DNA of 35,978 nucleotides from a bacterium (candidate division B38) B3_B38 (GCA_005223145.1 NJBL01000019.1:1-35978); one strand, 5' to 3'. Numbered from the stretch's first letter, positions 3,743 through 21,083 are shown. Notes: generated by a model from the sequence alone, not told the origin. A program made the numbers and translations.

Positions 3743-3743
3743 C

Positions 3744-4139: not shown

Positions 4140-4175
4140 GCTAAAAAGCTATATACAGAAGCAACCATAAACTTG

Positions 4176-4204
4176 TTGACATTAAAGGTATTTTGTATCA
4201 TAAT
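4176..4204 (+). promoter_or_regulatory. sigma70-type promoter, divergent from ssrA
   Basis: TTGACA (4176..4181), 17-bp spacer, CATAAT (4199..4204). Confidence 0.65.
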
Positions 4205-4297
4205 TTGAAAGAGTTACATCATTTTTCAAGGTGGTCAGTTATGACAAGCATTTATTTAAGCTTTGGCGAAAGATAATATATCGAAGGGAGGCGAGGA

Positions 4298-5350
4298 ATG
4301 GAAAATCAGAACCTTGAGAAAACCCCTTCGGAGGCGAGGGAGGAATGGGAACAGAAGCTCGATTCCTTTCGCCAGGAATTATCCTCCCTCAAAAGCAGTA
4401 TCAGTGAGGGCTGGGAGAAGCTGGAAAATGAGCTGCGCAAACTGATAGAGGAGGTCCCTCGGCTCAAGCCAACACCTGCGGGGGTCTCCTGGGAGGAGCT
4501 GGAGAAGGTGATCGAGGAGATAGACAGAGGGAGTAAGCAATCGGAGATTCTGAATAGCCTCCTCCTGGGAGTGGGCAAATACTGCCAGCGGGTAGCCCTC
4601 TTTGTCATTTCCGGGCAGGAGGTCGTCGGCTGGTTAGCCAAAGGCTTCAGTGCTGAAGGCGTTCCCACAGGCAGAGCCAAGGTTACCCTTCCCCTGACCC
4701 AGAATAACATTTTAAACGAGGTCAATACCAGGCAATCCACCGTTATAGCCAAACCCGAAGACCAGCCGGAGAATGATCAGTTTCTGCAGAGATTAGGGGA
4801 AGCTCTCCCCAAGCAGATATTGGCTACTCCCCTGTTTGTAAGGGGAAAGGTTGCTGCCATAATCTATGCTGACCAGGGGGATTCCTTGGAAGAGATTACC
4901 ATGGTCCCCCTGGTAGAGATTATTAGTAAGGTCGCTGGCATGGCTATTGAGCTCCTCCCTCTCAGGCGGAAATTAGCCGAGGCTCCCCCGCCGCCCAAAC
5001 CACCTGAGGAAGCTAAAGAGGAAGTAGAGGAGGAAGAAAAGGAAGAGGTGGAAGTTGCTCCCTCCCCCGAGGCAATAACCGAAGAGGACCGGAAAATCCA
5101 TGAAGAAGCCCAAAGGTTTGCCCGGCTGCTGGTTTCAGAGATAAGACTCTACAATGAGGTTGAGGTCACTCTGGGGAGGAAGAACCAGGACATCTATCAG
5201 AGGCTAAAAGACGACATCGAGCGGAGCCGCGACGCCTACAATAAAAGATTCCCCACCCTGGCTTCTACGACCGACTACTTCCACGAGCAGCTGGTAAAAA
5301 TCTTAGCCGAGGGGGACGAGTCGGCTCTGGGGATACAGGAACAGGATTGA
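4298..5350 (+). CDS. GAF-like domain protein with N-terminal coiled coil and acidic linker
   Basis: GGGAGGCGAGGAATGG start; QRVALFVISGQEVVGWLAKGF...ATPLFVRGKVAAIIYAD resembles a GAF fold; Glu-rich EEAKEEVEEEEKEEVEV linker. Confidence 0.75.
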   Translation: MENQNLEKTPSEAREEWEQKLDSFRQELSSLKSSISEGWEKLENELRKLIEEVPRLKPTPAGVSWEELEKVIEEIDRGSKQSEILNSLLLGVGKYCQRVALFVISGQEVVGWLAKGFSAEGVPTGRAKVTLPLTQNNILNEVNTRQSTVIAKPEDQPENDQFLQRLGEALPKQILATPLFVRGKVAAIIYADQGDSLEEITMVPLVEIISKVAGMAIELLPLRRKLAEAPPPPKPPEEAKEEVEEEEKEEVEVAPSPEAITEEDRKIHEEAQRFARLLVSEIRLYNEVEVTLGRKNQDIYQRLKDDIERSRDAYNKRFPTLASTTDYFHEQLVKILAEGDESALGIQEQD

Positions 5351-5379
5351 CCTTCTTCCCTATGAGAGAAGGTCCCCCA

Positions 5380-5634
5380 ATGAAAGGGATAATAAGAGGG
5401 GTGGGGGTATTTCTTCTTATCGCTTCTATCATCGCCCTGCTTTTGCTCTACTATTGCCTGAGCAGGATTAAAAGAGGAGAAGAGCAAGAAAGAGTTCCCC
5501 TTCTGGGCAATGGAAGAAATAAACTATGGGAAATCCCTTCTCAATGGGCAGGCAATCATATAGGGTCTATTTCAGATAATTCCCCAGGGAAATTAAGCTT
5601 TTACGGACTGCCTTTTCATTGTGAGCCTCAATAG
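5380..5634 (+). CDS. small single-TM hypothetical protein
   Basis: MKGIIRGVGVFLLIASIIALLLLYYCLSRIKRGEE..; co-directional with upstream gene but overlaps the convergent CDS at 5567. Confidence 0.35.
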   Translation: MKGIIRGVGVFLLIASIIALLLLYYCLSRIKRGEEQERVPLLGNGRNKLWEIPSQWAGNHIGSISDNSPGKLSFYGLPFHCEPQ

Positions 5635-6361
5635 TTAGCAAAGGGGACGATTCAGACCTCCGCAGCAGCCCAAAAAGCTCACCAAAGGGGAAATTTCCCT
5701 CCCCCAGGGCGAGATGTTCATCCAGCTTTCCATGGTTATCGTGGAGGTGCACCTCCATTAAGAAAGGGCGGAACATCTCTATCCATCGTGACAGCGGGCG
5801 CTTGGCGAAAACATTGTAGTGTCCGGTGTCAAAACAAAGCCCGAATCTGGGCGAGCCGATGCTGGAGACCAGTTGCAGGAGGTTATCGGGCGCGAACTCA
5901 AAGACATTCTCCAATGCCAGCGGTACCCCAACTCCCTCGCTGGACTTTAGTATCTGCTTCCAGGTGTCTAAGCTGTTGGTGAACCACTGCTCGACAATCC
6001 CCTGAAAGCGCCACGGGTCAAAGCCCGGATGAAAGACGACCAGCTCGGGTTTTAGCCTATCTGCAAGCTCAATAGTCTGGATAAATCGGTGGAAGGTCAC
6101 CTCTCTTATCTTAGAGTCGGCGCTCCCGGGGGAGAGGTTCTGGTAAGGACCATGGATGGTGCATTTGAGCCTCCCCTCCCTTAGCACGGAGACCACTGTG
6201 TCAAGTTCTTCTTGCCGCAATTGGTCCAGGTTATCTCCGTCAAAAAAGATTTCAAGGTTGACCCGCTCCTTCTTCACCTGGGGGAGATACCTGGAGAACT
6301 CTGAATAGGGGATATGGACAAAAACCTCTCCCGCCATCGGATTTCTATCTACATCTTCCAT
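5567..6361 (-). CDS. sugar phosphate isomerase/epimerase-like (AP endonuclease family 2 TIM barrel)
   Basis: KCTIHGPYQNLSPGS, VVFHPGF, ALENVFEF, LCFDTGHYNVF, EVHLHDNHGKLDEHLALGEG motifs. Confidence 0.85.
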   Translation of the reverse strand: MEDVDRNPMAGEVFVHIPYSEFSRYLPQVKKERVNLEIFFDGDNLDQLRQEELDTVVSVLREGRLKCTIHGPYQNLSPGSADSKIREVTFHRFIQTIELADRLKPELVVFHPGFDPWRFQGIVEQWFTNSLDTWKQILKSSEGVGVPLALENVFEFAPDNLLQLVSSIGSPRFGLCFDTGHYNVFAKRPLSRWIEMFRPFLMEVHLHDNHGKLDEHLALGEGNFPFGELFGLLRRSESSPLLTIEAHNEKAVRKSLISLGNYLK

Positions 6362-6416
6362 ACACTTTTATTATATCCACCAGCTCACCTCCTGTACAGG
6401 GTAAGGTTACCACCGT

Positions 6417-6445
6417 TTGACTGACACATCAAACTGTGGTAAAAT
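6417..6445 (+). promoter_or_regulatory. sigma70-type promoter upstream of TonB-like gene
   Basis: TTGACT, 17-bp spacer, TAAAAT; about 29 bp before the ATG at 6474. Confidence 0.6.
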
Positions 6446-6473
6446 TACAATAAATTATTGAGAAAGGATAAAA

Positions 6474-7637
6474 ATGCCCGAGGATAAGAAACCATCCAGC
6501 ATGCCCGATATACCCGTTGACAGATACCGCCCTACCGGTCAGCTCCCCCCTGAGGAGAGGGAGAAGAAGTCCCCTTACAGACCCCTGCTCATAGGGTTGG
6601 TGGTCATCTTCTGCATCACCATTGTCCTGGTCTTCTTGCAGCCTTTCTCATGGAAAGACCTTGGGCAAGGTATCCGCCACCTACCGGGAAGGATTGCTGC
6701 TCTGTTTACCTCGACCGAGGAAGAAGGCGCCCTTTCTCCCTCAGACCAACCTCAAGTGGAAGTCTCCGACATTAAAGCTGAACAATCTACCGAAGAGTCA
6801 AAAGAAGAAACCCCAGTTTTACCACAGATGACGGACGAGGAGAGGTATCGGCTCCAGATAGAAGAGCTTCAGGAGGAGCTGGTGGGTCTGCGGGATGAGA
6901 GGGAGAAACTCCAGCAGGAGCTCAAAAACAAAGAGAGGGAGCTGAACAGGGTGGACAGAGAGCTGAAAGAGGAGCAGAGAAAAAGGGGTGAGGCAGAAAA
7001 GAAAACCGCCCGAATAGAGGCGGAGTTTCAGACGGTCACCTCCTCCTACGAGGCGAAGATGGAAGCGCTGGAAGAGCAAGCCCGGAAAGACAAAGAGACT
7101 TACGAAGAAAAAATAACTGAGCTGCGGAACAGGCTGGATGAAGTGGAGAAGGAGATGGCCGAAACCCTCAGGCTCTACGATTCCCGCTCTCAAAAGGAGG
7201 CAGATGCGGTTGCCGACATTCTGAGGCAAGCGCAGGAGAACAGGCGAAGAAGGGAGAAGGCGGAAGCCGACCTCTCGGCTGCTCAAAGGGAGATAACCCG
7301 GTTAAAAGAGCAACTGGTAGAGGCACAGCGGGTCCGCGAGGGTGACCTCGTCCCCCTCGATGAGGAGGTCATCAAACCGGAGGTCATAGAATCCACCTCG
7401 CCCCGCTACCCACTTCAGGCTCGTCGTCGGGGAATTCAAGGGGTGGTGAGGATCAATGCCCTCATCTCAGAGAACGGCGATGTCCTTCGGGCAACAGTGG
7501 TCAATCCCTCCCCTGAGACCGAGATGCTGGAGGAAGCCGCCCTGGAGGCGGTGAAGCAGTGGAAGTTCGCCCCCGCCATCAAGGACGGGCAGAAGGTCAA
7601 GGTGTGGATGGTTATCCCGGTGAGATTTAAATCTTAG
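6474..7637 (+). CDS. TonB C-terminal domain protein with long coiled-coil periplasmic region
   Basis: N-terminal TM (PLLIGLVVIFCITIVLVFL), heptad-like Glu/Lys/Arg-rich stretch, C-terminal SPRYPLQARRRGIQGVVRINALISENGDVL...AALEAVKQWKFAPA. Confidence 0.85.
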   Translation: MPEDKKPSSMPDIPVDRYRPTGQLPPEEREKKSPYRPLLIGLVVIFCITIVLVFLQPFSWKDLGQGIRHLPGRIAALFTSTEEEGALSPSDQPQVEVSDIKAEQSTEESKEETPVLPQMTDEERYRLQIEELQEELVGLRDEREKLQQELKNKERELNRVDRELKEEQRKRGEAEKKTARIEAEFQTVTSSYEAKMEALEEQARKDKETYEEKITELRNRLDEVEKEMAETLRLYDSRSQKEADAVADILRQAQENRRRREKAEADLSAAQREITRLKEQLVEAQRVREGDLVPLDEEVIKPEVIESTSPRYPLQARRRGIQGVVRINALISENGDVLRATVVNPSPETEMLEEAALEAVKQWKFAPAIKDGQKVKVWMVIPVRFKS

Positions 7638-10419
7638 CCGATACCACCCGGCAGTGCTCTAACAGGCGGCGATAGAAAGGCTCTCGCTCCAGCAGTCGGG
7701 AGTCCCCCACCAGAATGAGCTTCTTTTTCGCCCTGGTCAGTGCCACATTCATTCGATGCCTTCCCCCATGGTTAATATCCCAGCAGCGACCAAATCCCTC
7801 TTTGCTTGTGTTGGTAAAGGAGATGATGACCACCTCCCGCTCCTCCCCCTGAAACTTCTCCACAGTGTCAATGGTGATACCTTCAATGGTGGGGAATTGG
7901 GAACCAAGGGACACAATTCGCTTCCGCAGATAGTCGACCTGAACCCGATAAGGAGCGATGACCCCTATCTCATTGCCTCTGATTCCTCCCTGCAGTAATC
8001 CCCTCACCGTCTGGCTGACCGCTTCCACCTCTTCCGGGTTGTGATTCTCTGCCCCCACTTCCGCCGGGAGGTTGGCGAACACCATTGGGCTATCGGGGTC
8101 GATGATGGGAAAGATTTCTGGAGAGATGATTTCCGGTGAGGGGAGGTGGAGACGGAGGTCAGCTACCGAAGGGTCAGCGACCATCTTCCTCTGGTAGAAT
8201 TGGCTGTTGGAGAAGGCGATTATCTCCCGGTTCATCCGGTATTGAACCGAGAAAAAGAGAGTGCGGTTCCTGTGAGAGTCCGAGGCTATGAGGCGCTCCA
8301 TCATAGAGCAATGTAAGCGGTTCCTCCTGGCTGCCGATGAGCGGACTACTGGTGGAAGTGAGAAGGGGTCGCCCGCCAGAAGGAATCTTTCTGACCGATT
8401 GAGGGGGATTAAGGTGGCGGGTTCGCTCAGTTGGCCTGCCTCATCGACCACCGCTACATCAAACCGCTGGCTGTGTATCAGGGGATTTGAGGCTGCGGTC
8501 CCCATGGTGCTGGCTATCACCGGGACCTCCAGTAGCCTCTCTCTCAGTTGACGGGTGGAAAGACCGGCGAGATAGGGGTCGAGGAGATAGGAGTGAAGCG
8601 TCTTGTTCACCGCTAAAGGGGTGCCTATGCGGAGGAAGCCCTCCCAGCCAAGCTCTTTAAGTTTCTGAAGAAGATGGTCCACTCCCTGATGGGTCAGGGC
8701 GCTGAAGAGCACCCGGCGCCCTCTCTGAGCCAGCTCTCTGATAATCAGGGCCAGCACCACGGTCTTGCCGGTGCCCGGCGCTCCCCAGACGACTAAAGGA
8801 GCGTCGGCAGATAGAGCCCTCTCCACGGCTTCTCTCTGACTCTGATTGAGCCATTCCTCTTTCCGGCTCAAGGTGGAGTGTTCCCCTGAAAGTGATACTC
8901 CCTCCACTTTTTCTCCTTTGAATAGGTAACCAACGAAAAGCGCCCGCTCCATCTGTTCCAAGTCTATCTTCTGCAGCGGCGGCTCGCCCCAGGCAGGGTC
9001 TTCTACCTCGTCTTGCACCATAAGCTGGAGGGTGGTGCCGGAGACCGCTTTGACTTTCCCCCTCGCAGTTCCCCTCTTACCCGCAGCAGAGGGGACTAAC
9101 AGAACCAGGTCTCCGGGCTCCGCTTGTGTCTCGTTCAGGCAACTGAAGGTCAGCTCCGTCCAGCCACCCGCTTTTTTCTTGCCGGTGAGTTTAAACTGCT
9201 CTATGACCAGCTCCCTTTTGAACTTCGGCTCCAACTTCCCCAGGTGTAGCTCTCCACTCAACTCCGCCAGATGCTCCCTCTCCGCCCTAACAGACTGGAA
9301 GTGTAACAGGAGGCGCTCTTGTGCAGAGGTTTCAACAGGAGGGGCTATTCTCTGCTCTTCAGAAAGCAGGGTGAAGAAAGGAGGAGGAGGGGAATCCGGT
9401 TGCTGGTGAGCATCAATTGACTGCCACAGGCGGAGGCAGCCCTGGCGAGAAAAACAGCGACTGCAGACCTCTCTCTGCTGAACGGGGGAAGGGTGATATC
9501 TTCCCAGGTCGATGGCCACCAGCTTGTTCCTGAGGTTGAGGAGCTGGCAGGTATGTCCGGAGTGCCATTCTACCTTTCTGTAGGGGAAATAGGACGGCTC
9601 CCCCGCATAGAGAACCCAGGCTTCTGTTTTTTGTTGTCCTTTGAGCAGGGCTTCCTCGACCAGCAGCGAATAAACGACCATCTGAGCCCGATGGTCGGGA
9701 TGAGGGTGATCGCCACACGCCCTTCCGGTCTTAAAATCTACTACAACCGCGCTGGCGGAGGCGGGGTTAACCATAAGAGTATCGACCCGTCCCTTCAGCC
9801 CCAGCCTGTGCGAGAGGAGGTAACGCTCGGTGCGGATGTCAAAGCCGGGATGGGCTTCTACCAGCTCCGTGAGCCATCCCTTCACCGATTCTATCAAGGG
9901 GCAGAGCCTCATAGCCAAACCCTCCTCCGAAGGGGGATACCTCAGGGCAGCCAGCAGGGTGTGATTTCTCTTGATTATCTCCTTAGCTTCCTTTGCCAGA
10001 TTGATTTCCCCCTTTGACTCCACCAGCCGGGCAAAAAGCTGATGAGCCAGGCTGCCGATTACCCCGTTATAGCCGGGGGGTTCGGGGGGAGATGCCCGAT
10101 TCGCCAGGTGCTTTCGGGGGCACTCAAGGGCGGTGCTGAGGGCGGTGGCCTCCAGCAGGAGACCGGGGCTGAGGATAAAACGGCTGTCGGCTCCCACCAC
10201 ATACTGGTCGCTTGCCATGGCTTCTCCCCGCCCGATGAAAAGGGGGGCTCCCTCCCAGAGAAGTTGAACGGTCTCCTCCCAACAAGGCTCTATCAGAAGC
10301 TCTATCTCCTCCCCTTCCGCTCCTCTGACTATCAGATGATAGCGTCCATCCCGCTGGGGAGTCACGGAAGGGCTCTTTGCCCTGACATAGAGTTCTTTCA
10401 GCATTCTTTGATTGCTCAT
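7627..10419 (-). CDS. Dna2-like Fe-S PD-(D/E)XK nuclease fused to SF1B (UPF1/Dna2-type) helicase
   Basis: ECPRKHL + CSRCFSRQGC cysteines; GRVDTLMVN...VVVDFKTG nuclease motif; GAPGTGKT, VVDEAGQ, QYRMNREI, TIDTVEKFQGEEREVVIIS, NVALTRAKKKLILVGD helicase motifs. Confidence 0.88.
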   Translation of the reverse strand: MSNQRMLKELYVRAKSPSVTPQRDGRYHLIVRGAEGEEIELLIEPCWEETVQLLWEGAPLFIGRGEAMASDQYVVGADSRFILSPGLLLEATALSTALECPRKHLANRASPPEPPGYNGVIGSLAHQLFARLVESKGEINLAKEAKEIIKRNHTLLAALRYPPSEEGLAMRLCPLIESVKGWLTELVEAHPGFDIRTERYLLSHRLGLKGRVDTLMVNPASASAVVVDFKTGRACGDHPHPDHRAQMVVYSLLVEEALLKGQQKTEAWVLYAGEPSYFPYRKVEWHSGHTCQLLNLRNKLVAIDLGRYHPSPVQQREVCSRCFSRQGCLRLWQSIDAHQQPDSPPPPFFTLLSEEQRIAPPVETSAQERLLLHFQSVRAEREHLAELSGELHLGKLEPKFKRELVIEQFKLTGKKKAGGWTELTFSCLNETQAEPGDLVLLVPSAAGKRGTARGKVKAVSGTTLQLMVQDEVEDPAWGEPPLQKIDLEQMERALFVGYLFKGEKVEGVSLSGEHSTLSRKEEWLNQSQREAVERALSADAPLVVWGAPGTGKTVVLALIIRELAQRGRRVLFSALTHQGVDHLLQKLKELGWEGFLRIGTPLAVNKTLHSYLLDPYLAGLSTRQLRERLLEVPVIASTMGTAASNPLIHSQRFDVAVVDEAGQLSEPATLIPLNRSERFLLAGDPFSLPPVVRSSAARRNRLHCSMMERLIASDSHRNRTLFFSVQYRMNREIIAFSNSQFYQRKMVADPSVADLRLHLPSPEIISPEIFPIIDPDSPMVFANLPAEVGAENHNPEEVEAVSQTVRGLLQGGIRGNEIGVIAPYRVQVDYLRKRIVSLGSQFPTIEGITIDTVEKFQGEEREVVIISFTNTSKEGFGRCWDINHGGRHRMNVALTRAKKKLILVGDSRLLEREPFYRRLLEHCRVVSAKI

Positions 10420-10449
10420 CTTCTTTTTATAAAATTCTGGAGTCGGTTG

Positions 10450-13400
10450 TTAAACCCTCTTATGGGGGCAGAAGCCCTCCTCACCCCCGTAGCCGCAGCG
10501 GAGACAATCGCGCCGGGAATGAGCGGCGGTGAGTCGGAAATCCCCATCCTCAATTCGCTTGACCATCTCCCTTATGGTCTGTTCTATCAGCGGAAGCTCC
10601 TCTTCCGAGAGGTCAATCTCCACTGGGCGCCCTTGGGGAAGCAGAAAGACCTCCACCCTCAAGGGTTCTGCTCTGCGGAGCTCCTCCCCCAGACATCCAT
10701 GGCGGCAGGCAAGGAGATATATCCCCATCTGAAACCGATAGTCCTCTTTTAGCTGTGGGGTGAGTTTGGGGGTGGTCTTGTAATCGACCAGGAACCACTC
10801 CCCGTTTTGCCGATGAACCCGGTCGATAAAGCCGTTCACGGTAATCTCCGAGCTGGGAGAGAGAGTGAGCTTGAGGTTAAACTCCTGCTCCAGGAACAGA
10901 GGGGATATTTCGCTGTAAGGATGGGCGGCATAGGAGGTAAACAACACCTCCCCCCTCTCTTTTAATATACGGTTGAGCTGGGAGGTGCTTAGCCTTTCAT
11001 TAACAGCCAGCTGGCGGAAGATGTTCCTCATGAGCTTCACTTTGTCCATCCCTTTTTTCAGCGGGTACTGCCGGTGAAATTCAAAGAGGGTCTTATGAAT
11101 GAGCGTGCCGAAGCGGGTCGGGCTGAGCCCCGGCGCCTCCCATCCCTCCTCTATCACCAGCGGGTATTCTTCCCTGTACTCCAGGGTAGGGACTTTAAGC
11201 TGGTGAAGGTACTGATACTTAACGGGGCAGTGGCGGAATATGTTGAGCTGGCTGAAGCCTATCCTGACTCTGCAGGGGCTTTCTTCCAGCGGATGAGCTG
11301 GTGCTTTTCCCTGCTCCCCTTCGCTCTGCAGGGAGGCGAGGGCATTCAGGCGCTCCTTGAGCTGGCTCACCTCTTGAGGGGTCAGGGGAGAGCCCCGGTC
11401 GTCTTTTGCCGACACCGGTGGGACCCCGGCTTCTTCGGGCATCTTTAGGAGGCTCGATGGTCCTGACTCCTGCTGGCAGTAGTCTTTTAACCTCTGGAAC
11501 TCCTCCCCTGATGCGTCGGAGGTGGTGATGATGAGCAGCTCCTGTGCCCGGGTCATAGCCACATATTTTATCCTCACCTCTTCCTCCGCTTCCTTTACTC
11601 TGGGGTCCTCAATGCTGCGGTATTTATGGAATCTCTTTCTTGCCGGTCCGGTATTTACCAGCAGCCCCCACTCCGGGCTGAAGTAGAGCGGTCGATAGCG
11701 GAAGCGCCTGAGTGAGTCGCTGGTGAAGTCGCTGAGAAAGACCACCGGGAACTCCAGCCCCTTGGCCTGGTGGATGGTCATGATGGTGACCACCTCCTCT
11801 TCCAGGGGAATCTCAGTGGGGGGCTCGTCGAGGTTATGCTCCACCAGGGTGGCGATGTACTGCAGGAAAGCAGAGAGGGAGGTAAACAGCCCACTCTCCT
11901 CAAAGTCCTGGGCAAAGCGGTATAACCTCTGCAAATTGGCTAATTTTATGCGGTCGGAGAGGGAGTCCCCGCTTTTCACCAATTGAAGATAGCCGCCCTC
12001 TTCCATCACCCGGGAGACCAGAGCGGAGAGGGAGATTTCGTGCTTGACTTCTATCATGCGCCGGAGGAGCTGGCTGAAATCGGATATCTTTTTCCTGGTC
12101 TCCGGCTCGAGGGATGCTAACCACCCTTCGGTTTCCAGCAGGGCAAGGAACAGAGGCGAACCTGCGTAAAGATGCAGGTCAGCCGCCTGGCGGAGCTGGT
12201 AGAGCTCTCTGTCAGAGATCCAGAAGCAGGGGCTTTTCAGCACCGCTGCCAGGGAGAGGCTGTCGAGGGGATTATCAACCACCCTGAGAAAATTTATCAC
12301 ATCGGCTACCTCCTGGGCGTGAAGGAAGCCGCCCCCACCGATGGTTTGAAAAGGTATATCATAGCGGGCTAACACGTCCTGATAGATGCGCACCTTCTCC
12401 CCGTTCCTCATTTTCCGCAGGAGGATGGCAAAATCTCCATAATTAATAGGTTCCCCTTCTGTCCGTTGAAACCTTTTATTAGATGTCTGCAGCGGCTGTC
12501 CGAGCAGCTCTCTTATCTTTCTGGCGATGAACTCCGCTTCATCTTCGGTAGAGGAGGCGTCGAAGATTCCCAGCGTGGGTTCCCCCCCTTTCCCCAGTTG
12601 GGCTTTGAGACGCCGGGGATGGGGTTTCACTGCGGGGAGCATAAGATGGCGGGAGAGGTCAAGGATCGGCTGAAAGGAGCGATAATTGTGAGTAAGGTGG
12701 ACTTCCAGCGAGCGGGGGAACCGCTCTGTCAGGTTAGTCACCTCGGCATCCCGGAAGCCGTAGATGCTCTGATGACAATCACCCACCACCGAGACATTGG
12801 TCATACCGGGTTGTGCCAACAGCTCCAGCAGAAGAAATTGAGCCGGGTTGGTGTCCTGAAACTCATCCACCAGTATATATTGGAAACGCTTCCGACAGCG
12901 GTGGCGGTAGTCCTCATCCCGCAAAAGGTGGTAAAGTTGGAGGAGGAGGTCGGCGAAATCGAGGGCGTTCTGCCTCAGAAGCTCCTCCTGATAGCTGGCG
13001 TAAGCATCCGCCAGAAGCTCAATCAGCGTGAGCTCCAGCTCCGTCTCTTCTTCGGAATGGGAGGGGTCGGTTTGCCGGAACTGACGAGCCTTATCCACGG
13101 AGAGCTTTCGGAACTCTTCGGGGGTGAGGAGGTGGAGCTTTATCCTGCGTATAACACGAGGGAATTCGGCTATCAAGCTGCGGAGGTTGAGGTGAAAGCG
13201 CTCACGGAGGTCTCGCAGCTCAGAGAAGCGAGAGTTGACAAAAAGCCTGATGCACTGCCTCAAGAGCAGTTCCTGCTGGTTCTCCTCCAGTATGCGGAAG
13301 TTGACATCCAATCCCAGATTAAAGGGGGACTCCCGCAGCAGGCGGGCTGCCAGGGCATGGAAGGTGGAGACCCACAGCCGTTGGGGGTCCAGCCCCTCCT

Positions 13401-13641
13401 TTTCCAGGCGGCGGCTCATCTCCTCGGCGGCTTTGTTGGTGAAGGTGAGGGCTAATATCTCCTCGGGCGCGAAATGGCGGGCCAGAGCCAGGAAGCGCTG
13501 GGTCATGGTCTGGGTCTTCCCGGTGCCCGGACCAGCGGCTATGGCCAGCGGCTGGTCTATTCCGGCTTCAATAGCCCGCAGTTGGTCGCTGTCCGGGGTG
13601 AAGCTCTTCCCTCTATCTTCCATTCTTCCTGCTTTGTTCAT
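10450..13641 (-). CDS. UvrD-family helicase with C-terminal RecB-type nuclease (AdnA/AddA-like)
   Basis: AGPGTGKTQTMTQRF, STFHALAARLL, ILVDEFQDTN, TIMTIHQAKGLEFPVVFL, VAMTRAQELLII; nuclease GFIDRVHRQNGEWFLVDYKT; cysteines CPVK and CLRCGYGGEEGFC. Confidence 0.9.
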   Translation of the reverse strand: MNKAGRMEDRGKSFTPDSDQLRAIEAGIDQPLAIAAGPGTGKTQTMTQRFLALARHFAPEEILALTFTNKAAEEMSRRLEKEGLDPQRLWVSTFHALAARLLRESPFNLGLDVNFRILEENQQELLLRQCIRLFVNSRFSELRDLRERFHLNLRSLIAEFPRVIRRIKLHLLTPEEFRKLSVDKARQFRQTDPSHSEEETELELTLIELLADAYASYQEELLRQNALDFADLLLQLYHLLRDEDYRHRCRKRFQYILVDEFQDTNPAQFLLLELLAQPGMTNVSVVGDCHQSIYGFRDAEVTNLTERFPRSLEVHLTHNYRSFQPILDLSRHLMLPAVKPHPRRLKAQLGKGGEPTLGIFDASSTEDEAEFIARKIRELLGQPLQTSNKRFQRTEGEPINYGDFAILLRKMRNGEKVRIYQDVLARYDIPFQTIGGGGFLHAQEVADVINFLRVVDNPLDSLSLAAVLKSPCFWISDRELYQLRQAADLHLYAGSPLFLALLETEGWLASLEPETRKKISDFSQLLRRMIEVKHEISLSALVSRVMEEGGYLQLVKSGDSLSDRIKLANLQRLYRFAQDFEESGLFTSLSAFLQYIATLVEHNLDEPPTEIPLEEEVVTIMTIHQAKGLEFPVVFLSDFTSDSLRRFRYRPLYFSPEWGLLVNTGPARKRFHKYRSIEDPRVKEAEEEVRIKYVAMTRAQELLIITTSDASGEEFQRLKDYCQQESGPSSLLKMPEEAGVPPVSAKDDRGSPLTPQEVSQLKERLNALASLQSEGEQGKAPAHPLEESPCRVRIGFSQLNIFRHCPVKYQYLHQLKVPTLEYREEYPLVIEEGWEAPGLSPTRFGTLIHKTLFEFHRQYPLKKGMDKVKLMRNIFRQLAVNERLSTSQLNRILKERGEVLFTSYAAHPYSEISPLFLEQEFNLKLTLSPSSEITVNGFIDRVHRQNGEWFLVDYKTTPKLTPQLKEDYRFQMGIYLLACRHGCLGEELRRAEPLRVEVFLLPQGRPVEIDLSEEELPLIEQTIREMVKRIEDGDFRLTAAHSRRDCLRCGYGGEEGFCPHKRV

Positions 13642-13771
13642 TTATCGGTTCTTGGCTTTGCGAAGGGCGAAGCATTTGGGTGAAATAATTGGTGCAAAGC
13701 TCATACTATATGAAGATAGCGCATCATTTGGGTGCCCTATTAGTTTTCTTCCGCAAGCGCTTAGCCAATCA

Positions 13772-14614
13772 TTAAGATTGGAGAGTATGCTTACCGGAAC
13801 GTGAAAGGTTAGCGGGTCCCGTCACAATTACAACGATTATAGCCCAAACCATAATCAGCATACCCATTATGTTGACTATATCTCCTTGAGCAACTCTGGT
13901 TGTAAATGCAACATCTACGGAACCATGGAACAAAATTACTACCAAGACACTTCCTTTGCTACTGTTATATAGCCATGTGAGAAGAACTGCTCCGGTAACG
14001 ATGCTGAAGAGCCAACCGATAATTCCCCCTATATTCATATTTGCATAGCCTGGTCTATACCAGAACATCGGCAGATGCCAAAGAGCCCACAACACACTGA
14101 GAATAAGCGTGGCTGACAGGGCGCTGCGGCCCTTTTGAAGCCTCGGCAATGCATATCCTCTCCATCCTGCTTCCTCACCCAGTCCAAAGGTTAGTGTGTG
14201 AAATATCCAGGTGGCAATCAGCCCGAATTGGGGAAATTCCTCCGCCAATCCGAACTGGCTGAAATCTGCCCATGCATCCCCGCGGATACGGACGGCTACT
14301 GCTGCAATCACAAACAGCGCCACCGGGCCGAACAGGGCAATGAGATGTCATTTGATACTAACACGCCACCGTACAATTCGACCAAGTAATTCTCGGAGCC
14401 CCGTCTTTCCGCTACTGATTCCTGTCACGATAATCGCAGCGAGGATTGGCCCAAATGCTCCAAAAAAATGATGATATGGTAAAACTGGTATATCACGAAT
14501 ACCCAACGAAGAGAGAACCAGCGGCGTCCAGATAATCCACGAGATTCCGTTGGCCAGGATAAAGTAGGTAGCAAGCGGGTGTTTTTTCATCCAAACCGAC
14601 ATGCGTGAGCTCAT
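13772..14614 (-). pseudogene. CPBP-family intramembrane metalloprotease interrupted by in-frame TGA
   Basis: ORFs 14348..14668 and 13772..14323 lie in the same frame, separated by one TGA (14350..14348) plus 8 sense codons: ...[23 protein letters not shown]...; [14 protein letters not shown] motif downstream. Probable start MSSRMSVWMKK at 14614. Confidence 0.75.
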
Positions 14615-14639
14615 GGTGAAGCTTCCTTCACCGCCTCTG

Positions 14640-15479
14640 TCAGGTTGTCTCCTTTGGCTTGACCCCATAAACGCTTATACTTACCACCGAACGGGCAAGC
14701 TCTTTTAGTGTTTCGGCTGGAATTTTCAGAAGCTCAATGAACTCCTTGGCAGCCGGGTCGTTACTGAGGAGCTCGATGGGGAAAGATTTCTCGTCAATTA
14801 CCCTCACCTCCCGAAATCCTGCCGCTTTGATGGCACTCAGGTATTCGTCCCTCATTATGGCCCCGGAGATACAGCCGACATATGCCTCCACTGAGCTCTG
14901 TATACAATCCGGCAGCTCCTTCAACAAAACAATATCCGAGATCATTATTCTGCCGCCCGGCTTGAGCGCCCTGAACGCTTCTCTGAAGACCATTCTTTTG
15001 TCGGGCGCGAGGTTGATGACACAATTGGAGATAAGCACATCCGCAGAGTTATCAGCCACCGGGAGATGCTCAACCTCCCCCAGCCTAAACTCCACATTTT
15101 CATAGTTGCCCTTGCTGGCGTTTTCTCTTGCCTTTTCAATCATCTCGGGTGTCATGTCCACCCCGATAACTCTTCCGTTGGGACCCACTTTGTTGGCAGC
15201 GATAAAACAGTCAAATCCCGCACCCGAACCAAGGTCAAGAACGGTCTCGCCTTCGCTTAAAGATGCAAGAGCAATTGGATTTCCACAGCCAAGCCCTAAA
15301 TTTGCCCCTTCGGGAATCCCTTTGAGCTCATCCTCGGTATAGCCTAACTTTTTGCCGATATCCTGAGCTTCGTCAGTGCTTTTGCAGCAGGGATTCACAG
15401 GACCACAACAGGAGCGATTGCGTTTGGCAGTTTTGGCATAGCCTTCTCTCACAGCTTTCTTTATCTCTTCATCCTTCAT
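14640..15479 (-). CDS. arsM: arsenite S-adenosylmethionine methyltransferase
   Basis: VLDLGSGAGFDCFIAANKVGPNGRVIGVDMTPEMIEKAR, SNCVINLAPDK, EAYVGCISGA with ArsM-type Cys positions. Confidence 0.93.
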   Translation of the reverse strand: MKDEEIKKAVREGYAKTAKRNRSCCGPVNPCCKSTDEAQDIGKKLGYTEDELKGIPEGANLGLGCGNPIALASLSEGETVLDLGSGAGFDCFIAANKVGPNGRVIGVDMTPEMIEKARENASKGNYENVEFRLGEVEHLPVADNSADVLISNCVINLAPDKRMVFREAFRALKPGGRIMISDIVLLKELPDCIQSSVEAYVGCISGAIMRDEYLSAIKAAGFREVRVIDEKSFPIELLSNDPAAKEFIELLKIPAETLKELARSVVSISVYGVKPKETT

Positions 15480-15511
15480 TTTTCAGTCACCTCCATAGTT
15501 GGTTGCCCGTA

Positions 15512-15796
15512 TCACTTTCCAACTATCTCTTTCATCACGGGACCGAGGAGTTCCTTTACCATCTCCCCAAATTCTTCTGCTTTAATTAAAGAGATGCAGC
15601 ATAATTTTCCATCTTTTTCCCAGCTTACAACCGCCAACTTCTCACCCGCCCGGATGTCCGCCTTATCCCTTATCTCTTTGGGAAGCACCATCTGTCCTCG
15701 CTCATCAATGCTTATTAATGATTCAACTTTACAGCAACTCATTCTATTGTCTGAGGACCCGCAAGAAGGTTTATTCTTTTTTACCATTCTCATCAC
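15512..15796 (-). CDS. Cys-rich AbrB/MazE/SpoVT-domain protein (resembles HgcAB-associated protein family)
   Basis: SLISIDERGQMVLPKEIRDKADIRAGEKLAVVSWEKDGKLCCISLIKAEEF AbrB fold; N-terminal CGSSDNRMSCC; immediately upstream of arsM. Confidence 0.8.
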   Translation of the reverse strand: MMRMVKKNKPSCGSSDNRMSCCKVESLISIDERGQMVLPKEIRDKADIRAGEKLAVVSWEKDGKLCCISLIKAEEFGEMVKELLGPVMKEIVGK

Positions 15797-15823
15797 CCCA
15801 TCGGATAGCTTATGCTAATTATA

Positions 15824-15859
15824 CTGATTTGTCTGATAAATCAGGTTACACTGATAAAT
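15824..15859. promoter_or_regulatory. 9-bp-phased CTGAT(A/T) repeats, possible operator
   Basis: CTGATTTGT at 15824, CTGATAAAT at 15833 and 15851 (spacings of 9 and 18); 15833..15844 is also CTGAT-AA-ATCAG. Confidence 0.35.
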
Positions 15860-15938
15860 ATAGCGCATTTAATACCACATGTCAAGCGGTTTTTCAAAGT
15901 TTTCTTTTCAGCGGGCTAAAAAAATTCCATTAGCTGCG

Positions 15939-16077
15939 GCATATCGCTTCATAGGGGCAACCCCAGTATCCCTGGCAGGTATCTGGCGCTGCTGAGGAGG
16001 GGCGGGCGGGGAAATAGCCCTGTTTGATACGGGAACAGCATTCCACAATGGTGGCTTCCACCTGCTGAAGCTCATCC
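15939..16077 (-). repeat. Direct repeat copy A: relic/duplicate of the helicase 3' coding end
   Basis: Matches 17619..17757 at constant offset 1680 without indels; 5 mismatches in core 15950..16077; encodes DELQQVEATIVECCSRIKQGYFPARPSSAAPDTCQGYWGCPY then EAICRS*. Confidence 0.95.
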
Positions 16078-16132
16078 TTATGTCCTCCATTCCTCTCCCC
16101 TTTTTTATCTGTCGTTTTGTTCATATCAGAAG

Positions 16133-16146
16133 TCCAGACGTCTGGA
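16133..16146. repeat. 14-bp perfect palindrome TCCAGACGTCTGGA
   Basis: TCCAGAC/GTCTGGA read directly, between copy A and the YaaA-like gene. Confidence 0.9.
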
Positions 16147-16152
16147 TATTTT

Positions 16153-16181
16153 TTAGCTAAGTTCCGAAGTAACCTAGCTAA
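16153..16181. repeat. Imperfect inverted repeat (10/11 arm matches, 7-nt loop)
   Basis: TTAGCTAAGTT-ccgaagt-AACCTAGCTAA; each arm contains TAGCTA. Confidence 0.8.
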
Positions 16182-16219
16182 ATATAATATGTTATACTAA
16201 ATTGGCAAAGGTGCGTTTT

Positions 16220-17023
16220 CTATTCAAAGTGGTTAATAACTCCCACATCTTGACGGTTAAAAGGAATTGTATAGAAATTATTCTGGATAAAATTGGACTT
16301 GATGAAAGAGACGATGAGCTTGCCTAATGTTTCTGGCACGATACGCAGAGCTCCACCTTTACTTTGAAAATTGATATAGTAAGTTCTTGCCACTTTTAAG
16401 CTTGTGTTTTCTTTCAATTTTAGCCAACTTATGCTCTTCATAATCTTTATATAATCTGATGTACGGGCGAAAAAGCCATAGATATTAGTAATTTTGTTTC
16501 TATCAATATATTCTTCTATTATTTTAGTTAGACAGTGCTTTTTCCAATATTTAGCATTCATCAGCTTCCTATAGTAATGTATCCTTTCGCTAGGCGTTAA
16601 AATTCCATAGGCTCCTGACATTATTAGTATATGAATATCTTTTCTAAAATAGACTTCTCTTACAGATTCTCTGAAACTATCAACGCTATAAAGAGATCCA
16701 TTGTATCTGTCCAAAGCAGCAATAAGTCCCGAATTTTTATCAATATAATATGCCATTCCTTTTCTTCCATTTAGGAGGTAATCTTTTGTGTTTACAATAT
16801 AATCGATGACTTTTCTTTCTTCAGCTTCTTTAAAAGTTTCATAAATGTCTTTTTTTTGTTTTTTTGCCGAATATGGAAATATTATTAAGACCTTTTTTCC
16901 TCGTAACTTAGTGGATGTTAATGGTTTTCCAATGTCTTTTAATTCTTTTGTGACAATAGGCTTAGGTTTTCTATGAATGAGAGACCTTTGTAAAAAGAAG
17001 AATAAGTTATTTTTGTTTGACAT
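16220..17023 (-). CDS. YaaA/DUF6884-like protein (tentative)
   Basis: KVLIIFPYSAKKQ... and ILIMSGAYGILTPSERIHYYRKLMNAKYWKKHCLTKIIEEYI resembles YaaA-type motifs; AT-rich gene with RBS. Confidence 0.6.
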   Translation of the reverse strand: MSNKNNLFFFLQRSLIHRKPKPIVTKELKDIGKPLTSTKLRGKKVLIIFPYSAKKQKKDIYETFKEAEERKVIDYIVNTKDYLLNGRKGMAYYIDKNSGLIAALDRYNGSLYSVDSFRESVREVYFRKDIHILIMSGAYGILTPSERIHYYRKLMNAKYWKKHCLTKIIEEYIDRNKITNIYGFFARTSDYIKIMKSISWLKLKENTSLKVARTYYINFQSKGGALRIVPETLGKLIVSFIKSNFIQNNFYTIPFNRQDVGVINHFE

Positions 17024-17150
17024 CTTCGCTCTCCTTTTTTATCCTTTTATTTCTTAGCTTCTCCAAGCCTCTTGCATATAAGGTGCTGAGATTATCTGAA
17101 ATCGGCTGATCGACAGCAAGTCTAGATAAGCTCTGTTAGGCGAAATTCCT

Positions 17151-17576
17151 TTATTTTCCTGTCCGGTTGTACTTTGGCAAATACTCATATATCAGTAAAG
17201 TTTCCACCAATGAAACAATATTTTTATCTTTTCCTTCAAATGATATAAAAGAAAAAACAAAATTGTCTTTAATAAAGGATTTGGATTCATCTCTTAAATT
17301 AAGACCGTACTCTTCAGCAATTTGTTTTCTAAATACACTTTTTGTGTAATTGTCTGATAAATGTTGGCGCATGATTCTTTGGTATAATCCCCTTCTTCCT
17401 AATGCGCGTCCTACATATACTATTTTATTGTTTCTCTTCGAGCGCCATAGATAAACACCAATTTTTTTAGGCACGGTATTTAATTCTATATTCTTAGGGT
17501 CATGATTTTCTGCTTTTACAAGTTTTTCAGAATATATAAGTGCATCTTTTAATTGTCTTTTAATTTTTTCAAACAT
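17151..17576 (-). CDS. GIY-YIG nuclease domain protein
   Basis: IGVYLWRSKRNNKIVYVGRALGRRGLYQRI...SLVETLLIYEYLPKYN: GVY..VYVG core, Arg, Glu and terminal PKYN typical of the family. Confidence 0.8.
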   Translation of the reverse strand: MFEKIKRQLKDALIYSEKLVKAENHDPKNIELNTVPKKIGVYLWRSKRNNKIVYVGRALGRRGLYQRIMRQHLSDNYTKSVFRKQIAEEYGLNLRDESKSFIKDNFVFSFISFEGKDKNIVSLVETLLIYEYLPKYNRTGK

Positions 17577-17609
17577 ATTTCATCCCCAACTAATAATATA
17601 GAATGCAGT

Positions 17610-20600
17610 TTATCTATTGCATATATTGGCATAGGGGCAACCCCAGTATCCCTGGCAGGTATCTGGCGCTGCTGAGGAGGGGCGGGCGGGGAAGTAGCCC
17701 TGTTTGATGCGGGAGCAGCATTCCACAATGGTAGCTTCCACCTGTTGAAGCTCATCCCCTGAGAGGCAATAGTAGTCTTCCTCATCGGTGGAGAAGCCGG
17801 GAAAGCAGAGCACTGCTGTGGACCATTTTATTCTTCCCTCTTTATCCTGGGCGAAGTATTGGAGATAGTATCCCGCCTGCCGGTCGAGCTTCAACCCTCC
17901 TGCGGTCACGCCCTCCCGGACAGCCAGCCAGGCTAAAACCGGGTGGAGGCGGAGCGGAGGCTGCTCCCTCCCCTGGCGGGTGACTGAGCTCAACATCCCC
18001 CGGGCCAGATTTTTGGCTTCGGTAGATTTTGTCTGGCGTTTTCGGAGGGCATGGTTCAGGATTATCACCCTCCCGTTGTCGTCCATCATCACCCCGTCCA
18101 CCCTCACTCTGAAAGGATAGCCCTGGTACTGGAATGCGAAGGTATCCCGGGATGCCAGGCAAGGAAGGTGAAGATGGGGGAGAAAGACCTCCTCCACATA
18201 GGAATTGATAATCTCCTTTATCTCGGCTTCGGTATATGTCATCGGGTCGGGCAGAGGGAGGGAGCGCTCCTCCAATGCTTGACGCCACAGCTCGTCTATC
18301 AGGGAGCCGAGCCTCTCCGTCCTGCGGGTGGCGGGGGCTTTTCGCAGAGACTCCCTCATATAGGGGATGTTGAGGAGGTTTATCACCTGCTTGACCACTC
18401 CCCGCCAGGCTCGCTGAGGGTCTGCGGGGGAGGTGATGTTCAAGATGGCGGAGTAGAGGGCTTTACGGGGGCAGGTAAGGTAGCTCTCCAGCATCCAGGT
18501 GCTGAAGGTGAACTCTTCCTGCTGTAGGGGTAGGGGCTCTTCTTTTGGGGAGATAGAAAGAGGGCGGGCATCCGACAATAGCTCATCTATGCCGGACACT
18601 GACCCCACCCAGAGCCCCTCACTCTGGGAAGGCTCCAATCGCTTCGCCAACTGAGCGAGCTCCTCCACCATCTCCCGTTTGAGCGGCGTCTTTTTCGAGA
18701 GGAGGTAGTGCGCGAGGTCCGATAGGGAGAGGACTTCGCCGATGCCAGTGACCTCCCTTGTCTGGCTGATGGCGGTGTTCCGCAGGAAGCCAAGCCCCGA
18801 CTTGTGGCAGCTCTCCTCATCAAGGGGGAGGTTGTTGTTCAGCAGGTGCAGGAAGCGGGAGGGGAGAAGGGGGAACAGGGTGCTCTTCTGAGAGTAGGTA
18901 AGATAGACCATTTGTTGGGCTTTGGTCATTCCCGCCCGCAGGAGTCGGCGCTCTTCCCGGTAGTGTTCATCATCGCTGCGAGGATAAGGGTGGTAGAAAT
19001 TGGGATATAGCTTTTTCATCCTCTCTAATTCGTCGGCGGTGAGCAACTCATCCCCTCGGAGGCGAAGGGGGAAACTCTCCTCCAATAAACCCGGGATGAA
19101 GATGACGGGGAACTGCCTCCCTTTTGTCTGGTGGATGGTCATCACCCTCACCCCTTCCTCCTCTTTTTCGGGCCGGTCCATGGAGGCTTCGGAGGCGAAG
19201 TGGCTTACCAGCTCGTCAATCTGGGAGATGAGTTCCTTAAATGTTGGCGGCTTCCCCTGGAGGGCGGTGAACACTTCGGTGAACTCCTGCACCATGGTGG
19301 TGAAGTGACGCAGGTGCCGCAGGGAATCACTTGCAGTGGTGGAAGGCGCCACATCCTTGGTGGCGGAGCCAACCAGGTAGGCCAGCAGCCCGCTGTGGTT
19401 CAAAATGCGGTGTATCAGTGTGGGCAGTGGCAGGGTGTCTTTCTCCCTTTCCAGCAGAAGAAAAGAGCGCATAAAGCGGAACAATTGTTGGAAGAATTCC
19501 CCATAGGATTCATCCTCCTCCAGGCGGCTTAATATCGGGGGGCGGGGGACAGGTGGGGTTTGGCTTATGTGGGTCTCCTTTAAGGGAAACAGGTCGGGAT
19601 AATCGGTGGTCAGCCACCAAGTTAACCCCTTGATGTAGTGGAACAGGCTCTCTCCATCCCTCCCCCGGGAGGCTTCCAGCCGGTGGAGCATCTGCGGTTG
19701 GAGGGCTGAAGCAGGGGAGTGGAGGACGCGTCTGAAATGCTCCCCCTCATCGGGTGAGGCGAGAGCTTTTAGATAGGAAATGAGGAAGCTCACCCCTTTG
19801 TCCTTATGAAAGGTGCTGCCCCCCATTATCTGATAGGGGATATGATGATAGCCGAGGGCTTCCTCCAGCGGCTTTGCCAGGGGGGAGAGGCGGCGGAGCA
19901 GAACGGCAAAGTCGCTATAGCGATACCCAGCAACACCCTGCTGGTTGCTCCCCTCGAGGAGTAGTCTTTTTATCTGGCGGGCGATGAAGAACGCCTCGTC
20001 AATAGGGGTTGGCTCGGCAGCCACGAAAACCGCATTTCCCGGCGGAGTGTCATGCGCTCCAGAGTTCGCCCTCTTCTCCAGGCGCTCCACTATCTGGAGG
20101 AGCTCGGGGTGACAGCGGTAGGACCGGGATAAGGTTATCACCTTAGCTCGGGAATAACACTTGAGGAAGCGGGGCTTCTCCCCGTTGATAGAGGCAATGT
20201 GTGAAGGGTCGCTTCCTCGGAATTTGAAGATGGCTTGCTCCGGGTCACCTGCCACACAGATGCAAGGGCTCTCGTTCTCCCGGGTCAACAAAGTAAGGAG
20301 ATGGAACTGAGCGGGGTCAACCTCCTGAAACTCATCGACGATAATGTAGCCAAATCTCTCCTGATAGCCCCGGCGGATTTCGGGATGTTCTTCCAGCAGC
20401 CTCACTGTTCTCCGCACCAGGTCTGGAAAGGCGAGGTAGCCGCTCTCTTCCATTTCCTTCTGAAGGGCTGAGTAAAGGCCTGCGAGGTCGGTGAGCTTGC
20501 GCTTCAGCGATACTTCCCCGGGAGTGGAGGGAGAGAAGTGGCTCACCATTTGCTGAAAATCGGCGGAGTCTATGAGGTTCTGCTTGAGTAATCGGATAAA

Positions 20601-21083
20601 CTCCCGCAGCTTGAGGGCAAAGCCCGCCTTCTCGGTCACTCCTCTCAGATAGCTTGTCAGCCCGAGAGAGGGGAGATTTCTCTTAAGAAACTGATGGACA
20701 AAAAGCCATTCCTCAAAGTCGCTGAGGATATGCAGATGAGCGGGGACCCCCGCCGCAAGGCTGTTCTCTCTGAGGAGCCTCCGGCAAAAGCCGTGAAAGG
20801 TGAAAATCCACAGCTCATCGTAGCTCTCGGTTAAATACTCATCCACCTTCTCCCGCCACTGCTCTGCCATCCTTGAGGAGAAGGTCAGTCCCAGAATGTT
20901 TCTACGAGGGACTTGCTTCTGGGTGAGCAGATAGGGTATCAGCAGGGTGAGGGTGCGGGTCTTGCCCGTGCCCGGTCCTCCTATTATCATCTGGGGTCCG
21001 TCAAATTCAACAATTGCCCGTCGCTGCACCTCATCGAGAGTGCTGAAATCCCGCTCCCACCTGGTAGAATTTAGCTTAGCCAT
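17610..21083 (-). CDS. UvrD-family helicase with degenerate C-terminal RecB-type domain and Fe-S cysteines (AdnB/AddB-like)
   Basis: GGPGTGKTRTLTL, FTFHGFCRRLL, IIVDEFQEVDPAQF, VMTIHQTKGRQFPVIFI; CPRK and CQGYWGCPYANIC cysteines; nuclease motif region VRVDGVMMDDNGRVIILNHAL lacks the D..K signature. Confidence 0.88.
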   Translation of the reverse strand: MAKLNSTRWERDFSTLDEVQRRAIVEFDGPQMIIGGPGTGKTRTLTLLIPYLLTQKQVPRRNILGLTFSSRMAEQWREKVDEYLTESYDELWIFTFHGFCRRLLRENSLAAGVPAHLHILSDFEEWLFVHQFLKRNLPSLGLTSYLRGVTEKAGFALKLREFIRLLKQNLIDSADFQQMVSHFSPSTPGEVSLKRKLTDLAGLYSALQKEMEESGYLAFPDLVRRTVRLLEEHPEIRRGYQERFGYIIVDEFQEVDPAQFHLLTLLTRENESPCICVAGDPEQAIFKFRGSDPSHIASINGEKPRFLKCYSRAKVITLSRSYRCHPELLQIVERLEKRANSGAHDTPPGNAVFVAAEPTPIDEAFFIARQIKRLLLEGSNQQGVAGYRYSDFAVLLRRLSPLAKPLEEALGYHHIPYQIMGGSTFHKDKGVSFLISYLKALASPDEGEHFRRVLHSPASALQPQMLHRLEASRGRDGESLFHYIKGLTWWLTTDYPDLFPLKETHISQTPPVPRPPILSRLEEDESYGEFFQQLFRFMRSFLLLEREKDTLPLPTLIHRILNHSGLLAYLVGSATKDVAPSTTASDSLRHLRHFTTMVQEFTEVFTALQGKPPTFKELISQIDELVSHFASEASMDRPEKEEEGVRVMTIHQTKGRQFPVIFIPGLLEESFPLRLRGDELLTADELERMKKLYPNFYHPYPRSDDEHYREERRLLRAGMTKAQQMVYLTYSQKSTLFPLLPSRFLHLLNNNLPLDEESCHKSGLGFLRNTAISQTREVTGIGEVLSLSDLAHYLLSKKTPLKREMVEELAQLAKRLEPSQSEGLWVGSVSGIDELLSDARPLSISPKEEPLPLQQEEFTFSTWMLESYLTCPRKALYSAILNITSPADPQRAWRGVVKQVINLLNIPYMRESLRKAPATRRTERLGSLIDELWRQALEERSLPLPDPMTYTEAEIKEIINSYVEEVFLPHLHLPCLASRDTFAFQYQGYPFRVRVDGVMMDDNGRVIILNHALRKRQTKSTEAKNLARGMLSSVTRQGREQPPLRLHPVLAWLAVREGVTAGGLKLDRQAGYYLQYFAQDKEGRIKWSTAVLCFPGFSTDEEDYYCLSGDELQQVEATIVECCSRIKQGYFPARPSSAAPDTCQGYWGCPYANICNR
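17619..17757 (-). repeat. Direct repeat copy B: 3' end of the intact helicase gene
   Basis: See copy A (15939..16077). Confidence 0.95.

What the first reader, a model, noticed from the sequence alone, without database searches (positions are those of the whole stretch)
15939..17757. Two-gene cassette (GIY-YIG nuclease + YaaA-like) inserted at, and rebuilding, the 3' end of an AdnB/AddB-like helicase gene
The last ~45 codons of the 17610..21083 helicase gene (the Fe-S cysteine tail) occur twice: intact at 17619..17757 and as an orphan at 15939..16077, at a constant 1680-bp offset without indels. Between them lie ~1.5 kb of visibly AT-rich DNA with a GIY-YIG nuclease gene starting 33 bp after the helicase stop, then a YaaA/DUF6884-like gene. 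Seen directly: repeats, ORFs, composition contrast. Inference: a mobile cassette that integrates in a conserved gene end and supplies a replacement end, with the GIY-YIG protein as possible homing/integration nuclease, or alternatively a small defence/repair module hitch-hiking in a recombination operon.
Basis: partly seen in the sequence, partly recalled or inferred. Interest (0 to 1): 0.85.

Follow-up and report, generated by a model that had tools for sequence, protein, structure and literature searches.

The report
Nuclease cassette replacing a helicase gene end
A short foreign stretch carrying a DNA-cutting enzyme gene and a partner gene sits at the end of a bacterial DNA-repair helicase gene and brought a spare copy of that gene end, so the helicase stays whole; small integrated mobile elements and fungal mitochondrial elements are known to do the same, but this one has no integrase of its own and an unfamiliar cargo.

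Summary
A 148-nt direct repeat (91%) of the AddB/AdnB-like helicase end flanks a 1,532-bp, 31.7% GC cassette in 53% GC surroundings. The cassette encodes a GIY-YIG nuclease (all five catalytic residues) and a YaaA-like protein.

A same-genus genome without the cassette ends its helicase CPYEAMCRS*, like the orphan copy A (CPYEAICRS). A is therefore the displaced native end, and B (CPYANICNR), now completing the gene, came with the insertion. B's last seven codons diverge abruptly but keep the cluster cysteine and the stop in the same codons; the chance from random cassette DNA is about 0.001. The element therefore probably carried a gene end, rather than simply duplicating its target.

The anatomy matches E. 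coli e14/icd (165-nt repeat, 93%, measured here), integrase-less att-flanked remnants (CIMEs) and fungal mitochondrial mORFs. No integrase lies in the cassette or window. The GIY-YIG protein has no separate targeting domain and nearest solved relative Eco29kI. Related YaaA-like genes lie in defence islands, once directly behind a GIY-YIG gene.

Best reading: a non-autonomous or decayed gene-end-replacing element carrying a probable restriction-type module. GIY-YIG-driven homing is possible but unsupported. No second example of the arrangement was found.

The parts
17610..21083 (-). AddB/AdnB-like UvrD-family helicase-nuclease (hel1), 1,157 aa, target gene; ends CPYANICNR* with copy B
   Evidence: UvrD-helicase, UvrD_C, PDDEXK_1 and ADDB_N matches; 85% aa identical orthologue in congener G002
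17610..17757 (-). Copy B: helicase end in use, next to the cassette; first 128 nt nearly identical to A, last 20 nt divergent
16078..17609 (-). Inserted cassette between the repeats, 1,532 bp, 31.7% GC
   Evidence: absent from G002 and G003; composition; single copy in the genome
17151..17576 (-). GIY-YIG nuclease gene, 141 aa; catalytic residues Y42, Y54, R67, E125, N137 present; starts 33 nt after the helicase stop
   Evidence: PF01541 E 3e-7; weak Eco29kI similarity; alignments
16220..17023 (-). YaaA-like gene, 267 aa, partner of unknown activity
   Evidence: PF03883 E 3e-7; relatives in defence islands
16079..16219 (-). Non-coding end of the cassette with two hairpins (16152-16182; palindrome around 16133-16146)
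   Evidence: folding z-score -3.4; inverted repeat I18; + strand terminator-like site
15930..16077 (-). Copy A: displaced native helicase end (CPYEAICRS*), orphan, frame still open
   Evidence: relatives G002 CPYEAMCRS and G003 CPYEKMCWE

Best explanation
A small integrated element landed at the 3' end of a conserved recombination-helicase gene. It carried its own functional copy of the gene end, which now completes the helicase (copy B), and it pushed the native end downstream (copy A). Shown: repeat, empty site, foreign composition, which end is native. Inferred: the element entered by recombination inside the shared gene-end block, in the way att-type elements such as e14 use icd. Because it encodes no recombinase, it is either a decayed element or one moved by an enzyme supplied by another element (CIME-like). 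Its cargo, a GIY-YIG nuclease plus a YaaA-like partner read just behind the helicase, is most likely a small restriction or defence module rather than the mobility machinery.
For: The congener G002 has the same helicase without the cassette and ends like A; G003 (same order) also ends CPYE.xC..*. B keeps I-C-x-x-stop in the same codons although 9 of its last 20 nt differ; random cassette-like sequence gives Cys and stop in place with P about 0.001. A and B differ at both ends and are identical over 64 nt in between, as expected after a crossover inside a shared block. All 5 core differences are synonymous, so both copies probably diverged as working gene ends. If A had been unconstrained since the split and only silent changes were accepted in B, the probability is 0.005-0.011. 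e14/icd gives the same picture: 165 nt, 12 differences, 11 at third positions. CIMEs of 1.2-13 kb without recombinases sit at 3' ends of protein genes (PMC7563491). Cargo: the nuclease is nearest to Eco29kI, and YaaA-like relatives sit in defence islands.
Against: No integrase, relaxase or transposase occurs in the cassette or among the window proteins scanned, and no integrase-bearing element at this gene end was found. One intact integrase elsewhere in the genome looks like a tRNA-site enzyme by its C-terminal tail. The identical block shows no significant core-type inverted repeat. A and B share 12 derived bases against G002, so the carried end came from a very close relative or arose in this lineage. 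The helicase tolerates amino-acid change (180 replaced against 177 silent codons versus G002), so the synonymous-only argument is moderate. Only one example exists.
Confidence: 0.5

Rival explanations
1. Homing: the GIY-YIG enzyme, perhaps aimed by the YaaA-like partner, cuts cassette-free helicase ends, and repair from a cassette-bearing copy installs the cassette and its replacement gene end. This would be a bacterial counterpart of fungal mitochondrial mORFs.
For: Same anatomy as fungal mORFs: endonuclease ORF plus a carried C-terminus and a displaced native C-terminus; the atp9 case is a GIY-YIG (PMC3630166). Catalytic residues are intact. The last codons of B are recoded.
Against: The protein is a lone 141-aa catalytic domain; no separate DNA-targeting domain was found. 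Nearest solved relative is a restriction enzyme. At the upstream junction B differs from the native sequence by only two silent bases within 25 nt, so the site would not be protected. Copy A keeps the native end sequence. Related GIY-YIG and YaaA genes are not at duplicated gene ends.
Confidence: 0.2
2. Insertion with long target duplication: the nuclease module entered by illegitimate or staggered-break repair that duplicated about 128 bp of the gene end in place, as proposed for restriction-modification genes in Helicobacter and other bacteria.
For: A and B share 12 lineage-specific bases against G002. The near-identical block ends sharply at CCCTATG. Restriction systems are reported to insert with long and variable target duplications (PMC3031569; Nobusato et al. 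2000, cited in PMC2630997). The nuclease resembles Eco29kI.
Against: B beyond the block would be random element DNA, yet it keeps the cysteine and the stop in the same codons (P about 0.001, or about 0.05 if selection demanded the cysteine). Orphan A has few changes, all silent.
Confidence: 0.22
3. No mobility: an ordinary small operon behind the helicase plus a chance partial gene duplication or pseudogene.
For: The genes are co-oriented with the helicase and start 33 nt behind it.
Against: Absent from relatives, base composition far below the surroundings, and both boundaries coincide with the repeat.
Confidence: 0.05
4. Assembly artefact of a metagenome-type assembly.
For: The genome is in 102 contigs.
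Against: The copies differ at 14 sites; the two junctions lie in one 36-kb contig; the intact reading frame continues through B.
Confidence: 0.03

Closest known systems
Prophage e14 at icd (E. coli K-12)
   Same: The element supplies the 3' end of a protein gene and leaves the native end as a displaced fragment; repeat 165 nt, 93% identical, differences almost all silent (PMC6379469). It too carries a restriction gene (mcrA) beside the displaced end.
   Different: e14 is 15 kb and encodes an integrase and excisionase; the present cassette is 1.5 kb and encodes neither.
CIMEs (cis-mobilizable elements)
   Same: Cargo flanked by gene-end direct repeats without recombination or transfer genes; size range 1.2-13 kb includes this one (PMC7563491).
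   Different: No parent ICE or IME, and no tandem partner with the same site specificity, was found; functional att sites not shown.
Fungal mitochondrial mORFs (Glomus atp6/atp9/cox2/nad3, Allomyces atp6)
   Same: Endonuclease ORF (GIY-YIG in the atp9 case) together with a carried, divergent C-terminus and a displaced native C-terminus (PMC3630166).
   Different: Those elements carry one endonuclease and no YaaA-like gene; here no evidence that the nuclease drives insertion.
Restriction-modification insertions with long target duplication (Kobayashi)
   Same: Nuclease module flanked by a long direct repeat of target DNA (PMC3031569).
   Different: No methyltransferase in the cassette; the end of B looks like a carried gene end, not target plus random insert.
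GIY-YIG restriction enzymes (Eco29kI, Hpy188I)
   Same: Compact GIY-YIG nuclease; weak sequence similarity to Eco29kI.
   Different: E 0.08 only; partner is YaaA-like, not a methyltransferase.

Membership tests
Gene-end-replacing integrative element (e14/icd type) | Direct repeat of a gene 3' end at both element boundaries, element-side copy completing the gene | tested here: met
Gene-end-replacing integrative element (e14/icd type) | Empty site in a relative matching the displaced copy | tested here: met
   G002 ends CPYEAMCRS like copy A
Gene-end-replacing integrative element (e14/icd type) | Encodes a site-specific recombinase | tested here: not met
   two ORFs only, GIY-YIG and YaaA-like
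CIME | Flanking att-like repeats, no recombination or transfer genes | tested here: met
CIME | Derivation from, or mobilization by, an integrase-bearing element with the same site | tested here: inconclusive
   none found; viral and plasmid searches with the gene end empty; genome integrases not linked to the site
Homing endonuclease / mORF | Endonuclease with intact catalytic residues | tested here: met
   Y42, Y54, R67, E125, N137
Homing endonuclease / mORF | Separate DNA-targeting domain giving long-site specificity | tested here: not met
   no other Pfam domain in 141 aa
Homing endonuclease / mORF | Cuts the empty allele but not the occupied one | not testable with these tools
   needs biochemistry
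Group I or II intron carrying an endonuclease | Intron RNA structure in the insert | tested here: not met
   no intron match in Rfam
Known anti-phage defence system (PADLOC-DB 2.0) | Both genes match models of one system | tested here: not met
   only weak GIY-YIG matches, none for the YaaA-like protein
Insertion with long target duplication | Repeats are duplicated target DNA with the insert unrelated to the target | tested here: inconclusive
   core fits; divergent but gene-like tail of B speaks against

The most novel reading that the evidence does not exclude
A bacterial counterpart of fungal mitochondrial mORFs: a two-gene element in which a compact GIY-YIG nuclease, aimed by a YaaA-like DNA-binding partner, homes into the end of a recombination-helicase gene and hands the gene a replacement, cut-resistant end so that invasion costs the host nothing.
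Probability: 0.13. Interest if true: 0.8.

Novelty: new variant of a known kind. Interest (0 to 1): 0.42.

Why it matters
It is a clean example, with an empty site for comparison, of how a nuclease module can enter a core DNA-repair operon without harming it, in a poorly studied bacterial lineage. If an in-trans recombinase is responsible, protein-gene ends in uncultured bacteria may hold many integrase-less cassettes that annotation overlooks, and short orphan gene ends are a simple signature by which to find them. If homing is responsible, it would link the fungal mitochondrial mORF strategy to bacterial chromosomes. The GIY-YIG plus YaaA-like pair is also a candidate uncharacterised defence module that can be tested directly.

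Tried and rejected
Group I/II intron: no Rfam match. Phage or plasmid origin: no relatives of either protein in phage records, and none in plasmids beyond a lone GIY-YIG in Curtobacterium; none in viral contigs. A carried helicase end in viral or plasmid sequence, as an attP would be: none. Genome-collection scans gave one lone GIY-YIG relative without a YaaA neighbour. Second copy of the cassette in the genome: none. Repeats around other YaaA/GIY-YIG loci: none flanking them. Inverted-repeat recombinase core in the identical block: not significant. AlphaFold models of both proteins were poor (mean pLDDT 31 and 40) and were not used. The whole genome was not available as a file, so a genome-wide hunt for other orphan gene ends was not done. 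The synonymous-difference test looked strong under a strict model (P 0.005-0.011), but the helicase accepts many replacements; allowing for that, my own estimate of the likelihood ratio is only about 6 (inference).

Full report
Observation. The window (contig C94 of genome G000) contains a 148-nt direct repeat, 15930-16077 (A) and 17610-17757 (B), 91% identical without indels at an offset of 1,680. It is the only long close repeat of the window. Copy B is the end of the reading frame of an AddB/AdnB-like helicase-nuclease, 17610-21083(-). Copy A is an orphan of the last 48 codons and the stop. Between them lie 1,532 bp at 31.7% GC, against 53% for the rest of the window and 56.8% for the helicase. 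They hold a GIY-YIG nuclease gene (17151-17576) and a YaaA-like gene (16220-17023), both on the helicase strand.

Which end is native. Genome G002 of the same genus has the helicase (85% aa identity) without either cassette gene. Its end reads CPYEAMCRS*, matching orphan A (CPYEAICRS*), not B (CPYANICNR*). G003 of the same order ends CPYEKMCWE*. A is therefore the displaced native end, and B arrived with, or was created by, the insertion. The third genus member, G001, gave no helicase hit and is 79% complete, so it is silent on this.

Was the end carried in or duplicated in place? Over the first 128 nt A and B differ at five sites, all synonymous third-position transitions: two derived in A and three in B relative to G002. 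They share 12 bases that differ from G002. So the two copies separated well after the split from G002. In the last 20 nt they differ at nine sites, an abrupt change. Even so, B keeps Ile-Cys and a stop in the same codons. Random DNA of the cassette's composition gives cysteine and stop in place with probability 0.0012. If selection demanded the cysteine, the stop alone is about 0.05. This favours a homologous, carried gene end over simple target duplication. The silent-only divergence points the same way: under a strict model in which A was free to decay, the probability is 0.005-0.011. It is moderate evidence only, because the helicase as a whole accepts as many replaced as silent codons (180 against 177).

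Yardstick. In E. coli K-12, prophage e14 replaces the end of icd. I fetched it and measured the repeat: 165 nt, 12 differences, 11 of them at third positions, two conservative replacements (described in PMC6379469). The anatomy is the same as here, down to a restriction gene near the displaced end. The difference is that e14 encodes an integrase. The present cassette has only two genes, and no integrase, transposase or relaxase was found among the window proteins scanned. Elements of this form, with flanking repeats but no recombinase, are known as CIMEs, 1.2-13 kb long and found at 3' ends of protein genes (PMC7563491; PMC5704250). Fungal mitochondrial mORFs give a second parallel: an endonuclease gene travels with a foreign C-terminus and displaces the native one, once with a GIY-YIG enzyme (PMC3630166). 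A third is the insertion of restriction systems with long target duplications (PMC3031569).

The nuclease and its partner. The GIY-YIG protein is a lone 141-aa domain with the residues expected of an active enzyme (Y42, Y54, R67, E125, N137). No separate targeting domain was found. Its only relative among solved structures, weakly, is the restriction enzyme Eco29kI (E 0.08). The YaaA-like protein has rare relatives: 6 of 396 genomes of the phylum matched a profile of it. Most of those inspected are in defence neighbourhoods: beside McrBC and directly behind a GIY-YIG gene, with an IS fragment between (L045); beside type I restriction genes with another kind of GIY-YIG gene upstream (L052); beside a BREX-type ATPase (L054); beside a DUF262-like gene (L062, by eye). 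One (L061) is not. None of the loci scanned for repeats (L045, L052, L053, L054, L061, L062) is flanked by a duplicated gene end. The pair is therefore best read as a small defence or restriction cargo, and the gene-end duplication as a property of how this copy was inserted.

Homing considered. For homing, both occupied-allele junctions must resist the nuclease. At the upstream junction B differs from the native sequence by only two silent bases within 25 nt, and A retains the native downstream end. The enzyme has no recognisable long-site domain. Homing is not excluded, since the YaaA-like partner might supply specificity, but nothing found here supports it.

Surroundings. In G003 hel1 and the next helicase, hel2, are about 50 bp apart. 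In G002 several hundred bp of debris lie between the hel1 stop and the apparent start of hel2. In the window this interval holds the cassette, copy A and a further 2.3-kb block (HgcC-like regulator, methyltransferase, small ORF, CAAX protease) not found in G001, G002 or G003. The hel1-hel2 junction is thus a site of repeated insertion in this genus.

Limits. Structure predictions were too poor to use. Mechanism steps beyond the anatomy and the empty site are inference.

Noticed in passing
window 13772-15796: A 2.3-kb block between hel1 and hel2 (HgcC-like AbrB-type regulator NF040962, UbiE/ArsM-type methyltransferase, small ORF, Rce1/CAAX protease) was not found in G001, G002 or G003; the hel1-hel2 junction is a repeated insertion site.
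   Followed up: partly
G000:C47:11503-11862 (L073): A 388-residue open frame with a CdhD-type match and the motif NVWCSATGG instead of the mercury-methylation motif NVWCA(A/S)GK of HgcA (motif from memory), near a methyltransferase; possibly an HgcA-like paralogue, in the genome that also has the HgcC-like gene.
   Followed up: partly
L045 (G350:C62) 2817-5162: A GIY-YIG gene followed by a YaaA-like gene with an IS fragment between them, beside McrBC-like genes and a GHKL-type ATPase gene: a second, unstudied pair.
   Followed up: partly
L063 (G122:C1) 4228-9705: A YaaA/DUF6884-like gene in a row with genes that look by eye like NurA, HerA and a tRNA-guanine-transglycosylase-like (DpdA-like) gene, suggestive of a 7-deazaguanine DNA-modification cluster.
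   Followed up: no
window 16079-16219: Two strong hairpins (one with a UUCG-type loop, one a perfect palindrome TCCAGACGTCTGGA) between the YaaA-like stop and orphan copy A; may be a terminator or an element end.
   Followed up: partly
L040 6730-7359 (G002): Debris between hel1 and the apparent hel2 start in G002, including reading frames that look like methyltransferase fragments.
   Followed up: no
window 7627-21083: Three large helicase-nuclease genes (Dna2-like, hel2, hel1) on one strand, an AddAB/AdnAB-like recombination cluster interrupted by the inserted blocks.
   Followed up: no
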